From: Oceanotoga teriensis
GTDB taxonomy: Bacteria; Thermotogota; Thermotogae; Petrotogales; Petrotogaceae
Length of the DNA stretch: 64,000 bases
Reading direction: 5' to 3'
Assembly: GCF_003148465.1 (NCBI RefSeq)
Contig: NZ_QGGI01000001.1
Span: forward strand, 221,170 to 285,169
Shown here: piece after piece, positions 5,275 through 11,620 of the stretch
Position numbering within the stretch: position 1 is the stretch's first letter
Layout: each line of letters opens with the position of its first letter
Program-made: the position numbers and the translations under genes
The notes under the pieces: generated by a model
Seen by the model: only the letters and a program-made list of their open reading frames with translations
Told to the model about the DNA's origin: nothing
Databases searched by the model: none

Positions 5275-5388
5275 ATTAAATTAAAAGTTAATTTTTTATT
5301 TTAATTTAATGTATTCATATTTTTTATTTTACTTATATTTAATAAATAAATATTAGAATGTAATGGGGAGTTTTTGAGGGTGGTGATT

Positions 5389-7064: not shown

Positions 7065-9032
7065 TTATATAAATAATAATCCTATATTATATACAATAAA
7101 TGAAACTACATAAGCAAGAACAAAAGTATATATCACACTAAACCAAGCCCATTTTGCACCTATTTCTTGTTTTATAGCCCCAATAGTCGCAACACATGGA
7201 GTATATATCAATGTGAATACTAAAAATGCATACGCACTTGCAGCATTAAAATACTGTGGAAGTACTGTAGTTAAAACATCTTCTCCTCCAAATATAGTTC
7301 CCATAGTTCCTATAACAATTTCTTTTGCTAAAAATCCGAATATTAAAGAAACTCCTGCTTGCCAAAATCCAAAACCTAAAGGTTTGAATATAGGAGCAAT
7401 AACAGAGCCTATATGTCCAATTATAGAGCTTTCTGATGCATATTCAACTCCAGATGGTAATGTTGCAAGAATCCATATAACTATAACTGTACCAAATATT
7501 ATAGTTCCAGCTTTTTTTATAAACATCATAGTTCTTCTTCCAGCTTCAAGTAGTATAGCTTTTAAACTTGGTAATCTATATGGAGGTAATTCCATTATAA
7601 ATACGCTTTCTTCTTTTTTAAACATAGTTTTATTAAATATAGTTGCCATTATTATAGCAAGAATAACTCCTAATAAATAAAGTGAAAATATAACTAAACC
7701 TGCATGTTTTGGAAAGAATATTCCGGCAATCAATATATATACAGGTAATCTTGCATTACAAGACATTAAAGGAGTGACAAGTATTGTTATTATCCTATCT
7801 TTTCTTGATTCAAGAGTTCTTGTACTCATTATAGCTGGTATACTACACCCAAAACCAAGTATCATAGGTATAAATGATTTTCCATGAAGTCCGATTTTTG
7901 TCATTAATTTATCCATAACAAAAGCAGCTCTTGACATATATCCAATATCGCCAAGAAAAGATATAAATAAAAACAATAAAAATATATTAGGCACGAAAAC
8001 TAATACTGAACCAACTCCACCTATTAATCCATTTACAATAAAGTTTGTCAATAAATTATCTGGTAATTTTGTAGAAACTAAATCTCCCAAAGATGCAAAG
8101 CCATCATCTATCATTCCATTAAAAACATCACCAATTGTAAAAGTCAAAGTAAATATAGCAAACATTATAATCAAAAATATAGGTATACCCAACCATCTAT
8201 TAGTTATTATTTTATCTATTTTATCAGAAGTATTATTAACTAAATTTTTTCTTTTAACATACTTTCCAGATATTTTTGTTATAAAATCATATTTTTTTTC
8301 AGATACAATAATACTTGCATCATCATCATTTTGTTTTTCTAATTGAGCTATCAATTTATCTATTTGAGTCAAATTATCTTTAGAGATATCTTCTCTAAAT
8401 TCAACATCACCTTCTATAAGTTTTAAAGAAACCCATCTTTTAGATTTTTCAGATATATTTTTTTCTTGTTCAATAATATTATTTATCTGACTTAGGATAT
8501 TTTCAAAACTCTCATCATAATTTAAATTCTCTGGATATTGAGGGCTTTTTAAAGATCCTTCAATCTGTTTCTTTAAATCTTCTAAACCAATTTTTTTATT
8601 TGCAGATGTTTTTACGATTGGAATTCCAAGTTCTTTTGATATTGAATTTATATCTATCTTTATCTGTCTTTTTTCAAGTTCATCACTCATATTAAAAACT
8701 AAAAGAGTGTTTTTTTGCATTTCCATGATCTCTGTAACTAAATACATATTTCTTTCAATATTAGTTTGATCTACAACAACTACTATTAAATCCGGATTAT
8801 CTTTTATCAAAAAATCTCTTGCAATTCTTTCATCCATAGAATTAGCTGTAAGAGAATATGTTCCAGGAAGGTCTACTATTCTATATTCTTCATCATTATA
8901 TTTAAGTTTTCCTTCTTTTTTTTCAACAGTAACTCCTGGCCAATTCCCTACATGTTGATGACTTCCAGTTAAAGCATTGAAAATTGTAGTTTTTCCACTG
9001 TTTGGATTACCACATAAAGCAACTGTTTTCAT
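7065..9032 (-). CDS. feoB: Ferrous iron transporter FeoB
   Basis: Inner-membrane Fe(II) permease with a cytoplasmic GTPase domain, 655 residues, close to the usual family length. The GTPase motifs are intact: GNPNSGKTT (8-16), the switch region HVGNWPGVTVEKKEG, DLPG (54-57) and NMSD (114-117). A helical linker leads to the membrane part with the Gate motif region (MSRAAFVMDKLM, GFGCSIPAIMSTRTLESRKDR) and the second gate near the end (FTLIYTPCVATIGAI). The ATG overlaps the feoA stop (ATGA), with GGAGGCGAT upstream. It is the last gene of the dtxR-feoA-feoA-feoB operon and probably iron-repressed by the regulator of the same operon. Confidence 0.98.
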   Translation of the reverse strand: MKTVALCGNPNSGKTTIFNALTGSHQHVGNWPGVTVEKKEGKLKYNDEEYRIVDLPGTYSLTANSMDERIARDFLIKDNPDLIVVVVDQTNIERNMYLVTEIMEMQKNTLLVFNMSDELEKRQIKIDINSISKELGIPIVKTSANKKIGLEDLKKQIEGSLKSPQYPENLNYDESFENILSQINNIIEQEKNISEKSKRWVSLKLIEGDVEFREDISKDNLTQIDKLIAQLEKQNDDDASIIVSEKKYDFITKISGKYVKRKNLVNNTSDKIDKIITNRWLGIPIFLIIMFAIFTLTFTIGDVFNGMIDDGFASLGDLVSTKLPDNLLTNFIVNGLIGGVGSVLVFVPNIFLLFLFISFLGDIGYMSRAAFVMDKLMTKIGLHGKSFIPMILGFGCSIPAIMSTRTLESRKDRIITILVTPLMSCNARLPVYILIAGIFFPKHAGLVIFSLYLLGVILAIIMATIFNKTMFKKEESVFIMELPPYRLPSLKAILLEAGRRTMMFIKKAGTIIFGTVIVIWILATLPSGVEYASESSIIGHIGSVIAPIFKPLGFGFWQAGVSLIFGFLAKEIVIGTMGTIFGGEDVLTTVLPQYFNAASAYAFLVFTLIYTPCVATIGAIKQEIGAKWAWFSVIYTFVLAYVVSFIVYNIGLLFI

Positions 9033-9262
9033 ACTCTATCGCCTCCGGTTATCTCTATATATTTTGCTTCTTCTTTTCTAAGACTTAAAGAATAATTTCT
9101 TATCTTTATTTCTAAAGGATCTCCCAAAGGCGCTTTTCTCACGAGTAATATTTCTATTCCTGGTGTTAATCCCATTGCTAAAAGTCTTTGTCTGACTTTT
9201 AAATTTCCTTCAAGCTTTTTTATTTTGCCTGAATATCCTACTTCACATTCATCAAGAAACAT
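9029..9262 (-). CDS. feoA: FeoA-domain protein (second copy, beside feoB)
   Basis: Small SH3-like protein of 77 residues, thought in this family to assist FeoB. Recognised by the pattern RQRLLAMGLTPGIEI followed by RKAPLGDPLEIKIR and RKEEAKYI. It overlaps feoB by 4 bases. The sequence is strikingly like the C-terminal domain of the fused regulator at 10039-10701 (shared RKAPLGDP, then an E-x-I-R core), more than like the other FeoA at 9305. It lies 42 bases downstream of that other FeoA gene. Confidence 0.95.
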   Translation of the reverse strand: MFLDECEVGYSGKIKKLEGNLKVRQRLLAMGLTPGIEILLVRKAPLGDPLEIKIRNYSLSLRKEEAKYIEITGGDRV

Positions 9263-9304
9263 TGTTAGTCCTCCCTAATTTTAAAAAAATAAAAAAATAA
9301 TATT

Positions 9305-9523
9305 TTATATGTTTTTAACAAAAATTCTTTTAGCCATATTTTGACCTATTCCATATCTACTTCCATCCACCAATATAATTATAGGGCCTCCAAAATTCCC
9401 ACTCAAAACTTCTATATTTTTTCCTTCCATTATTCCCATTTTTGCAAGTCTTCTTTTCATCATAAGACCTGAACTTATTTTTTCAACTATAAAATTTCCA
9501 ATATTTGCAAATACTAAAGGCAT
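9305..9523 (-). CDS. feoA: FeoA-domain protein (first copy)
   Basis: FeoA family protein of 72 residues with the core MMKRRLAKMGIMEGKNIEV. The middle loop reads GNFGGPIIILVDGSRYGIG instead of the RKAPLGDP type seen in the neighbouring copy, so it has diverged and may have a separate role. Its ATG starts 1 base beyond the stop of the dtxR-type gene, so translation is coupled to that regulator. Two different FeoA proteins beside one FeoB is a known arrangement in several anaerobes. Confidence 0.93.
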   Translation of the reverse strand: MPLVFANIGNFIVEKISSGLMMKRRLAKMGIMEGKNIEVLSGNFGGPIIILVDGSRYGIGQNMAKRIFVKNI

Positions 9524-9524
9524 T

Positions 9525-9956
9525 TTATTCCTCCTTTAAATTGATAGATTTCAAATGCTTTTGAAACTCGATTTTATAATTTTCATTTTCTTCAAAAAAA
9601 GATTCTAATAATTCTATAGAATTTAAAAAATTTTTTGAGTTTATATGCTCTATTTTACAAGAAACTTCATCCGCCTCTTTTTCACTAAAATTTAAAAAAT
9701 CCAACAAAAATTTATTCATTATATATTTTCTTTTATACAATTTTGAAGCTTTAATTATGCCTTTTTGAGTTAAATTTATATGACTATGTTTTATATACTC
9801 TATATAGTCATACGATTCAAGTCTTTTCAAGGCACTTATAACGGAAGAATGTTTCACTTCCGCTTCATTAGTTATGTCTCTAACTTGTATTATTTTATTT
9901 TGTAAATATAGCTTGTATATAGCTATTAAATAATGTTCAAGATTTTCAGTCATCAA
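9525..9956 (-). CDS. DtxR/MntR-family metal-dependent repressor, short form
   Basis: Metalloregulator of 143 residues: an N-terminal winged helix (LEHYLIAIYKLY, VRDITNEAEVKHSSVISALKRLESYDYIEY) and a dimerisation/metal-binding domain with SCKIEHINS, matching the Cys-x-x-Glu-His site of the DtxR family. It lacks the C-terminal SH3/FeoA-like domain; instead a free FeoA gene follows at once. It is the first gene of the feo operon and has its own promoter with a palindrome over the likely start of transcription, so autoregulation by Fe(II) or Mn(II) is the obvious model. Which metal it senses cannot be told. Confidence 0.93.
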   Translation of the reverse strand: MMTENLEHYLIAIYKLYLQNKIIQVRDITNEAEVKHSSVISALKRLESYDYIEYIKHSHINLTQKGIIKASKLYKRKYIMNKFLLDFLNFSEKEADEVSCKIEHINSKNFLNSIELLESFFEENENYKIEFQKHLKSINLKEE

Positions 9957-9970
9957 TTTAATCTTCCTTT

Positions 9971-9986
9971 TGTAGTTAGTTCTACA
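9971..9986. promoter_or_regulatory. Candidate operator of the feo operon (GTAG-N6-CTAC)
   Basis: The 16-base inverted repeat TGTAG-N6-CTACA has perfect 5-base arms. It sits 2 bases downstream of the -10 box of the dtxR-feoAAB promoter and covers the probable transcription start. The same arm sequences and spacing recur at the second regulator gene (10718-10733). Confidence 0.65.
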
Positions 9987-9988
9987 TT

Positions 9989-10017
9989 ATTTTACCACCT
10001 TTAATTTACTTTGTCAA
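9989..10017 (-). promoter_or_regulatory. Promoter of the dtxR-feoA-feoA-feoB operon
   Basis: On the minus strand, TTGACA (10017-10012), a 17-base spacer and TAAAAT (9994-9989) make a near-consensus sigma70 promoter. The -35 box directly abuts the T-tail of the terminator of the upstream gene. Confidence 0.8.
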
Positions 10018-10020
10018 TAA

Positions 10021-10046
10021 AAAAATAGACTTTTCAGTCTATTTTT
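10021..10046 (-). terminator. Terminator of the fused dtxR-feoA regulator gene
   Basis: AAAAATAGAC, a 6-base loop and GTCTATTTTT form a 10-base stem, with a T-run beyond it on the minus strand. The stop codon of the regulator (10039-10041) lies inside the stem. Confidence 0.85.
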
Positions 10047-10701
10047 CTAAAATAATATTTTCAGCTTCGGTTTTTCTTATTGCAACATTATAGCCTCTTA
10101 TAAGTACTTCAATCGGATCTCCTAAGGGGGCTTTTCTCAATAATTCTACGTCTATTCCAGAGGTTATTCCCATTACCATTAATCGTCTTTTTATTGCCTC
10201 ATTACCTCTAACTTCAAGAACTTTTGCTTTTTCTCCAACTTTTAAATCTTTTAAAGTTTTTTCAAAAGTGCTTGATTTATCTTTATAATTAGTAATATAC
10301 TGCTTATATTTATTTTTTATTTCTGTATTGCTTTCTATAAAATTTCTTAGAATATCCATAGATTGAATGAGCTTTTCAGACTTTATATGTTCCATTTTAC
10401 ATGATAATTCTTCTGCTTCAAAAGGGGATATGTCCAAAACATTCATCAAGAAACTTCTTATAGTCATTCTGTTTTTATATATTTTTTGAGCTTCTATTAT
10501 TCCGGGTTGAGTTAATTTTACATAACCTCTTTTTTCATAAGTAACAAAAGAAATACTTTTTAATTTTTTTATTGCGTCTATGGCAGAAGTATGTTTTACA
10601 GACATCAATTCTGTAATGTCTTTAACTCTTGCAATGTTGTTTTCAAGTTGTGCTTCATATATAGCAAGCAAATAATTTTCAAGACTCTCTGATAATTCCA
10701 T
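10039..10701 (-). CDS. DtxR/MntR-family repressor fused to a C-terminal FeoA domain
   Basis: Full-length metalloregulator of 220 residues. Residues 1-70 form the winged helix (VKDITELMSVKHTSAIDAIKKL), about 75-135 carry the metal and dimer domain with SCKMEHIKS, and about 150-220 are a FeoA/SH3-like domain (IKRRLMVMGITSGIDVELL, RKAPLGDPIEVLIRGY). ATG 10701 is chosen because AGGAAG lies 9 bases upstream; a GTG three codons earlier would overlap that site. It is monocistronic, with its own promoter, operator-like palindrome and terminator, immediately upstream of the feo operon. A second, non-fused regulator heads that operon, so two related repressors may share targets. Confidence 0.95.
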   Translation of the reverse strand: MELSESLENYLLAIYEAQLENNIARVKDITELMSVKHTSAIDAIKKLKSISFVTYEKRGYVKLTQPGIIEAQKIYKNRMTIRSFLMNVLDISPFEAEELSCKMEHIKSEKLIQSMDILRNFIESNTEIKNKYKQYITNYKDKSSTFEKTLKDLKVGEKAKVLEVRGNEAIKRRLMVMGITSGIDVELLRKAPLGDPIEVLIRGYNVAIRKTEAENIILEK

Positions 10702-10717
10702 ATAAATCACTTCCTAT

Positions 10718-10733
10718 TGTAGTTTTTCCTACT
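10718..10733. promoter_or_regulatory. Candidate operator of the fused dtxR-feoA regulator gene
   Basis: The palindrome GTAG-N6-CTAC (10719-10732) lies 2 bases downstream of the -10 box, exactly the placement of the palindrome at the feo operon (9971-9986). The two repeats share arms but not the central six bases, as expected of a dimeric repressor site. Confidence 0.65.
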
Positions 10734-10735
10734 TA

Positions 10736-10764
10736 ATTCTACCATATATATTTGTATAAGTCAA
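10736..10764 (-). promoter_or_regulatory. Promoter of the fused dtxR-feoA regulator gene
   Basis: On the minus strand, TTGACT (10764-10759), 17 bases and TAGAAT (10741-10736) form a good sigma70 promoter. Confidence 0.75.
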
Positions 10765-11410: not shown

Positions 11411-11432
11411 GTAAAATTTAATATATAAACTT

Positions 11433-11575
11433 TTAAGGTGTATAACAGGGAATTAGGTGAAAATCCTAAGCGGCCCAGCCACCGTATGCAGGGATGAAAA
11501 TCATAAATGCCACTGGTTTTTAACTGGGAAGGCTTGATTAGTAAAATGATCTGTAAGTCGGGAGACCTACCTTTT
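11433..11575 (+). promoter_or_regulatory. Cobalamin riboswitch
   Basis: RNA leader that binds adenosylcobalamin or a related corrinoid. The class landmarks appear in order: GGTGAAAATCC (11456-11466), the B12-box core GCGGCCCAGCCACCGTA (11470 onward), GCCACTGG (11509-11516), TGGGAAGGC (11525-11533) and AGTCGGGAGACCTACC (11556-11571). The outer helix P1 can form between AAGGTG (11435-11440) and the ACCTT region (11569-11573). It lies between btuR and cbiC, so it controls the cbi operon but not btuR. Confidence 0.97.
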
Positions 11576-11587
11576 AAGTTCGTAACT

Positions 11588-11620
11588 TTGCTTTTTCTTG
11601 GTGTGAAAAGCAAGGATTTT
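11588..11620 (+). promoter_or_regulatory. Expression-platform hairpin of the riboswitch
   Basis: TTGCTTTT (11588-11595) pairs with AAAAGCAA (11606-11613), followed by GGATTTTT. The stem ends at the edge of the cbiC ribosome site (AAGGA at 11612-11616) and is followed by five T. It could terminate transcription, hide the ribosome site, or both. An alternative small hairpin (AAGTT/AACTT, 11576-11588) competes for its left edge. Confidence 0.6.

What the first reader, a model, noticed from the sequence alone, without database searches (positions are those of the whole stretch)
9971..10733. Same palindrome GTAG-N6-CTAC at identical positions in both dtxR-type promoters
At the feo operon (9971-9986) and at the fused regulator gene (10718-10733) an inverted repeat with arms GTAG/CTAC and a 6-base centre lies exactly 2 bases downstream of the -10 box, over the expected transcription start. 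The arms match and the centres differ. This is strong evidence for a shared operator, different from the longer classic DtxR/IdeR and MntR boxes I know. Cross-regulation between the two metal repressors is implied.
Basis: partly seen in the sequence, partly recalled or inferred. Interest (0 to 1): 0.65.

Follow-up and report, generated by a model that had tools for sequence, protein, structure and literature searches.

The report
Shared operator of an iron regulon
The repeated GTAG-N6-CTAC sequence is very probably the DNA switch by which a diphtheria-toxin-repressor-type protein turns off nine promoters, mostly for iron and heme uptake, in this Thermotogota bacterium; it is a short, single-dimer version of a known kind of switch, used here for iron where most bacteria use a different repressor (Fur).

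Summary
TGTAGAACTAACTACA (9971-9986) and AGTAGGAAAAACTACA (10718-10733; minus-strand sequences) each start 2 bases past a sigma-70 -10 box. The window holds 2 such sites against 0.1 expected. The motif is not enriched genome-wide by raw count (25 versus 22 for the reversed pattern), but nine copies sit on promoters. Besides the two in the window these serve a split feoB operon, a FecCD/ChuW-like heme operon, its divergent flavodoxin, an ECF importer of the Trep_Strep/MptD family, two ABC/MATE clusters next to AraC genes, and zinT. The same sites lie on orthologous dtxR, feo and flavodoxin promoters of relatives; more distant DtxR-feo operons carry ATAG-N6-CTAT at the same place. Second-type (FeoC-type) feo operons lack it in 19 of 20 loci. 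The geometry equals the one-dimer IdeR half-site TTAGGNNNNCCTAA (PMC8464063), so it is not a foreign box. Best explanation: an Fe(II)-dependent, FeoA-fused DtxR-type repressor covers the start site of its own gene and of iron and heme uptake genes. Cross-regulation is plausible but the second DtxR is not needed, since relatives have the same sites with one regulator. Binding and metal are inferred, not shown.

The parts
9971..9986 (-). operator 1, TGTAGAACTAACTACA (gene strand), at the feo operon promoter
   Evidence: exact match; conserved at feo promoters of G001, G007, G011
9989..9994 (-). -10 box TAAAAT of the feo promoter
   Evidence: sequence
10012..10017 (-). -35 box TTGACA of the feo promoter, 17-bp spacer
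9525..9953 (-). dtxR1: two-domain DtxR-family regulator without FeoA/SH3 domain, first gene of the feo operon (ORF listed from TTG 9956)
   Evidence: Pfam PF01325 + PF02742; best PDB match B. subtilis MntR
9305..9523 (-). feoA
   Evidence: Pfam PF04023
9029..9262 (-). second feoA
   Evidence: Pfam PF04023
7065..9032 (-). feoB
   Evidence: TIGR00437 above cut-off
10718..10733 (-). operator 2, AGTAGGAAAAACTACA (gene strand), at the dtxR2 promoter
   Evidence: exact match; conserved at orthologous dtxR promoters of G001, G007, G027, G028, G037
10736..10741 (-). -10 box TAGAAT of the dtxR2 promoter
10759..10764 (-). -35 box TTGACT of the dtxR2 promoter, 17-bp spacer
10039..10701 (-). dtxR2: DtxR-family regulator with C-terminal FeoA domain (wHTH + dimerisation + FeoA); the conserved, autoregulated member
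   Evidence: Pfam PF01325, PF02742, PF04023; 60% identical to the G007 protein; tree

Best explanation
The palindrome is the operator of a DtxR-family, FeoA-fused iron repressor (dtxR2, 10039-10701). One repressor dimer reads the two inverted TAG/CTA half-sites, which have 6 bp between them. With metal bound, most likely Fe(II), it sits on DNA from the -10 box to just past the start of transcription and blocks RNA polymerase. Targets are its own gene, the feo operon beside it, and at least seven other promoters, most of them for iron and heme acquisition. When iron is scarce it lets go and all are derepressed. dtxR1, inside the feo operon, is a lineage-restricted paralogue with nearly the same recognition helix; it probably reads the same site and adds a second feedback loop. 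Shown: the sites, promoter geometry, gene content and conservation. Inferred: the identity of the binding protein, the metal, and repression.
For: (1) Nine promoter copies in this genome share invariant GTAG...CTAC arms with varied centres, and most precede iron/heme genes: feo; dtxR2; split feoB operon DUF4198-feoA-feoA-feoBN-feoBC; FecCD-ATPase-ChuW/HutW-like radical SAM-binding protein; flavodoxin; ECF Trep_Strep importer; two ABC/MATE clusters with AraC genes; zinT. (2) Of the eight full TGTAGN6CTACA in the genome (count), seven are promoter sites and one lies inside a gene; P below 1e-4 for intergenic fractions up to 0.15. (3) In the seven genomes with this operon type and GTAG sites, all 17 exact copies found by the -35/-10-anchored search lie on dtxR, feo, flavodoxin/Fec, AraC-ABC or zinT promoters (genes). 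(4) Orthologous dtxR/feo promoters keep it at -10+0 to +4 in G001 (three sites), G007, G027, G028, G037; G023, G035, G045 and G058 have ATAG...CTAT at the dtxR promoter. (5) G058 carries that variant both at its dtxR-feo promoter and twice on its heme operon. (6) FeoC-type feoB1 operons lack it in 19 of 20 loci, even in genomes that have it elsewhere. (7) Heme operons of G080 and G088 lack it; only short, weakly matching DtxR-type frames were found there. (8) dtxR1 and dtxR2 share helix VKH[ST]S; the third paralogue, with VRDAS and no such promoter site, is a different clade. (9) Cys at the DtxR Cys102 position, an iron-type ligand (PMC10317159).
Against: No binding, expression or metal data. 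The raw genome count is unremarkable, and genomes with no DtxR hit also show some excess of TGTAGN6CTACA over the reversed control (for example G019 8 versus 2). The comparison of intergenic share with control palindromes (10 of 25 versus 3 of 15) is not significant alone. The metal site is a hybrid: Asn (DtxR2) or His (DtxR1) replaces Met10, and the ancillary-site residues look absent (reading). A comparable hybrid, P. gingivalis MntR with FeoA domains, responds to Mn and does not bind the iron-feoB promoter (PMC4805248). zinT and the AraC/ABC clusters are not certain iron genes. G033 has a dtxR-feo operon without the site, and G025 has a degenerate one.
Confidence: 0.82

Rival explanations
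1. The operator is bound by a Fur-family protein, of which the genome has at least two, not by DtxR.
For: Two clear Fur-family proteins exist in the genome, one of unknown target (G000:C30) and one beside a zinc-type ABC operon (L177). Iron regulation outside Actinobacteria is usually by Fur (PMC10317159).
Against: The arms and 6-bp centre match a DtxR-family site. The znuA-like promoter next to the second fur-family gene carries a different palindrome, ATGCAAATTATTTGCAT, as expected of a Zur box. The motif marks DtxR-linked feo operons and is missing from nearly all FeoC-type feo operons and from heme operons of G080 and G088.
Confidence: 0.08
2. The two sites in the window are only a relic of a tandem duplication of dtxR with its promoter, without regulatory meaning.
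For: The two genes are paralogues (about 41% identical), 750 bp apart, and the promoters look alike around the -10 box (TGGTAaAATaAtGTAG versus TGGTAgAATtAaGTAG).
Against: Centres differ while arms are kept. Seven non-homologous promoters carry the motif. G001 and G007 have it both at dtxR and at feo without a dtxR1 gene.
Confidence: 0.03
3. The repeat works as an RNA hairpin at the 5' end of the mRNA (stability or translation control).
For: The two window sites can fold as a 4-5 bp hairpin, -3.7 and -4.2 kcal/mol, z about -2.5.
Against: At the FecCD promoter, G001 feoA and G007 feo the left arm directly abuts the -10 box (0 bases), so it would lie upstream of the start of transcription and not be transcribed; the expected FecCD transcript has no hairpin. 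Any DNA palindrome folds as RNA.
Confidence: 0.04
4. It is a manganese (MntR-type) operator rather than an iron one.
For: NCBIfam's best, sub-threshold models for both regulators are MntR. Position 10 is Asn or His, and MntR proteins carry Asp or Asn there (PMC10317159). The FeoA-fused hybrid PgMntR is a manganese regulator (PMC4805248).
Against: Targets are feo, FecCD/heme and flavodoxin genes. No Nramp gene exists in the genome. Cys occupies the Cys102 position.
Confidence: 0.12

Closest known systems
IdeR/DtxR iron box and its one-dimer half-site (Saccharopolyspora erythraea IdeR, PMC8464063)
   Same: 14-bp inverted repeat with TAG/CTA at the same spacing (TTAG-N6-CTAA versus GTAG-N6-CTAC); overlaps the -10 box and start site; iron-uptake targets; three-domain regulator
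   Different: outer base G/C (or A/T) instead of T/A, inner G/C not conserved, no overlapping second dimer site (classical box is 19 bp, two dimers); hybrid metal site
MntR boxes, for example E. coli MntR (ATAGC-N4-GCTAT, recalled, not checked here)
   Same: same RTAG-N6-CTAY frame as the ATAG variant of G058, G023, G035 and G045; one-dimer site
   Different: targets here are iron and heme genes; Cys at the position where MntR has Glu
Porphyromonas gingivalis MntR (PMC4805248)
   Same: DtxR-family regulator with C-terminal FeoA domain(s), hybrid Fe/Mn primary site with Cys, encoded with a Feo-type transporter
   Different: two FeoA domains and Asp instead of Asn/His; binds a manganese-transporter promoter, not the iron feoB promoter

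Membership tests
DtxR-family regulator (protein) | N-terminal Fe_dep_repress wHTH and Fe_dep_repr_C dimerisation domain | tested here: met
   both proteins above Pfam cut-offs; profile matches IdeR, DtxR and MntR structures
DtxR/IdeR (iron sensor subfamily) | C-terminal SH3-like/FeoA-type third domain | tested here: met
   PF04023 in dtxR2; not in dtxR1, which ends after the dimerisation domain
DtxR/IdeR (iron sensor subfamily) | sulfur ligands Met10 and Cys102 with Glu105, His106 in the primary site | tested here: inconclusive
   Cys, Glu and His present, but Asn (dtxR2) or His (dtxR1) at the Met10 position
DtxR/IdeR (iron sensor subfamily) | ancillary site (His79, Glu83, His98) | tested here: not met
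   aligned residues are not His/Glu at these places in either protein (my reading, with DtxR numbering recalled); alignment by sequence only, no structure
DtxR/IdeR 19-bp iron box | TTAGGTTAGSCTAACCTAA, four CCTAA repeats, two dimers | tested here: not met
   sites are 14-16 bp with one TAG/CTA pair
one-dimer DtxR-family operator | inverted TAG...CTA with 6 bp between, at -10/+1 | tested here: met
   spacing is met by construction of the search; position measured at 19 promoters; compared with PMC8464063
MntR regulon | sites at manganese transporter genes such as mntH | tested here: not met
   no Nramp in the genome; no identified manganese gene among the targets
Fur box | GATAAT-type inverted repeats around a 1-bp centre | tested here: not met
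   invariant arms are GTAG/CTAC with 6 bp between
any of these | metal-dependent binding and repression in vitro or in vivo | not testable with these tools
   needs EMSA/footprint and expression data

The most novel reading that the evidence does not exclude
A two-sensor arrangement on one operator: a FeoA-fused repressor and a stripped paralogue without the FeoA domain both read the same box, with different metal ligands (Asn versus His next to Cys). Iron level, and perhaps the state of the Feo transporter through the FeoA domain, would be integrated at one site in a bacterium that uses DtxR, not Fur, as its iron master regulator.
Probability: 0.2. Interest if true: 0.65.

Novelty: new member of a known kind. 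Interest (0 to 1): 0.48.

Why it matters
It gives a concrete, testable iron/heme regulon for part of the Thermotogota, with a defined operator and a named regulator. It is a natural case where one-dimer DtxR-type sites appear to be the standard operator of an iron regulon; PMC10317159 says it remains open whether such half-sites exist in other species and what they do. It also shows DtxR-type rather than Fur-type control of feo and heme uptake outside Actinobacteria and Archaea, and a swap of the outer operator base (G to A) between genomes that can be matched to changes in the recognition helix.

Tried and rejected
Raw motif counts: 25 versus 22 reversed in the genome and variable excess across the class, including genomes with no DtxR hit: uninformative, dropped as evidence. 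The relaxed pattern TRTAGN6CTAYA gives 84 versus 39, mostly unassigned; not used. Intergenic share against the reversed-control palindromes: not significant with 15 controls. RNA hairpin: rejected on promoter geometry. Tandem-duplication relic: rejected. The third DtxR paralogue (G000:C26) as regulator: it lies in an operon without the site, and relatives with only that type lack the GTAG site at feo. A named-genome scan returned one relevant relative, Thermotogae bacterium UR.bin268, which matches G007. No paper describing an iron or DtxR regulon of Thermotogota was found in the library; the RegPrecise paper names no DtxR regulog, but the database itself could not be searched. A hairpin terminator in L054 that matches the pattern was set aside.

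Full report
Observation. The two sites are exactly where stated, and they are the only GTAG-N6-CTAC in the 64-kb window (0.10 expected). On the gene strand the feo promoter reads TTGACA-17-TAAAAT-AA-TGTAGAACTAACTACA and the dtxR2 promoter TTGACT-17-TAGAAT-TA-AGTAGGAAAAACTACA. The genes were confirmed: 9525-9953 is a two-domain DtxR protein, 10039-10701 a DtxR protein with a FeoA domain, and 7065-9523 feoA, feoA and feoB. The 'fused' layout is close to the normal three-domain layout of DtxR/IdeR, whose third domain is SH3-like (PMC10317159).

Is it more than chance? The bare pattern is not enriched in the 2.79-Mb genome (25 versus 22 reversed). Position decides. Reading all 25 places, nine lie just upstream of genes next to a -10-like box, one is a hairpin at a gene end, and the rest are coding. 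Of the eight with the complete TGTAGN6CTACA, seven are promoter sites and one lies inside secY-like coding sequence; the binomial P is 7e-7 at 10% intergenic DNA and 1e-5 at 15% (fractions assumed). Against reversed-control palindromes alone (10 of 25 versus 3 of 15) the excess is not significant, so gene identity and conservation carry the case.

What the nine promoters drive. Window: feo operon and dtxR2. L163: a flavodoxin, and divergently FecCD permease, ATPase, a radical SAM protein closest to the ChuW/HutW heme-degradation family (below its cut-off) and a substrate-binding protein. L167: two secreted proteins (one DUF4198), two feoA and a feoB split in two genes. L168: double ABC ATPase and a Trep_Strep/MptD-family ECF S component (above cut-off). 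L164 and L166: ABC transporter pairs and MATE proteins with AraC regulators. L165: a ZinT-family protein. Iron and heme acquisition is the common thread. That the Trep_Strep importer carries heme, and that the ABC pairs carry siderophores, is my guess from related systems and was not tested.

Conservation. A search anchored on -35 and -10 over 103 genomes of the class recovers the site at three promoters of G001 (dtxR-feoA, feoA, feoA-feoB), three of G007 (dtxR, feo, flavodoxin), two of G011 and one each of G027, G028 and G037. With six in this genome, these are 17 exact GTAG...CTAC copies in the seven genomes, all on this gene set (genes). G023, G035, G045 and G058 have ATAG-N6-CTAT at the dtxR promoter; G058 repeats the variant twice on its heme operon. 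Across 25 tabulated sites TAG and CTA are invariant by construction of the pattern, the outer base is G/C or A/T, and the six central bases vary. Over 19 promoters the distance from -10 to RTAG is 0-6 bases.

Contrast. Eleven genomes have a feoB of the DtxR-linked type; nine have the site at the operon, G025 has a degenerate one and G033 none. Twenty loci of the other feoB type (FeoC-like partner), some in the same genomes, have no GTAG form and one ATAG form, in G008. That is 9 of 11 versus 1 of 20, though genomes are related and not independent. (The Fisher test printed used 0 of 18 and is superseded.) Heme operons in G080 and G088 lack it; the promoter in G082 is cut by the contig end. In G088 the promoter region instead shows TGAGAATGAGTCTCA, which looks Fur-like (by eye).

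Which protein. A tree of the DNA-binding and dimerisation domains puts dtxR2 with G007 and G001 (95/90), and the third paralogue in a separate, fully supported clade that shows no site at its own gene. dtxR1 has a long branch and its place is unsure. dtxR1 and dtxR2 share VKH[ST]S in the recognition helix; G027, G028 and G037 have VKTSS, the ATAG users VKVPT, YKVSS or VKTAS, and the third paralogue VRDAS. This favours the dtxR2 type as the binder and allows dtxR1 to bind too. G001 and G007 have the sites with no dtxR1, so dtxR1 probably joined an existing circuit.

Metal. The position of DtxR Cys102 is Cys in both regulators, followed by the Glu and His ligands; the Met10 position is Asn (dtxR2) or His (dtxR1). 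MntR proteins have Asp or Asn there and Glu in place of Cys (PMC10317159). The site is therefore a hybrid and cannot settle the metal; P. gingivalis MntR, also a hybrid with FeoA domains, responds to Mn (PMC4805248). The gene content argues for iron. The znuA-like promoter has its own palindrome, and no Nramp gene exists.

Comparison with known boxes. PMC8464063 showed that one IdeR dimer binds TTAGGNNNNCCTAA and proposed this 14-bp unit as the core. The present site has the same length and the same TAG/CTA spacing.

Verdict. A real operator of a DtxR-type iron/heme regulon, new in detail, of a known kind. The protein-DNA contact, the metal and the direction of control remain to be shown.

Noticed in passing
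window 11419-11588 (+): Cobalamin riboswitch (Rfam RF00174, 102.5 bits) upstream of cobalamin-biosynthesis-like genes, right next to the iron locus.
   Followed up: no
G000:C5 locus L167: Third feo system with feoB split into a G-protein gene and a membrane gene, behind two secreted proteins (one DUF4198), under the same operator.
   Followed up: partly
G000:C4 locus L177, about 747-765: ATGCAAATTATTTGCAT palindrome just upstream of a ZnuA-like gene followed by a Fur-family gene: a likely Zur box, distinct from the GTAG motif.
   Followed up: partly
L172 (G058) 5316-5348: Two ATAG-N6-CTAT sites 19 bp apart over -35/-10 of a FecCD-ATPase-flavodoxin-radical SAM operon; may bind two dimers.
   Followed up: partly
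L171 (G041) 3024: GTAGATGTTCCTAC right after a good -10 box upstream of a copper-type P-ATPase, next to a second palindrome CCCACGTGGG; probably a different regulator.
   Followed up: no
L224 (G088) promoter gap 329-716: TGAGAATGAGTCTCA, Fur-box-like, at the heme operon of a relative without a DtxR2-type regulator.
   Followed up: no
L162 (G000:C11), upstream of the FeoC-type feo operon: A tRNA-like gene with a terminator lies between an upstream promoter and the feo promoter (read by eye).
   Followed up: no
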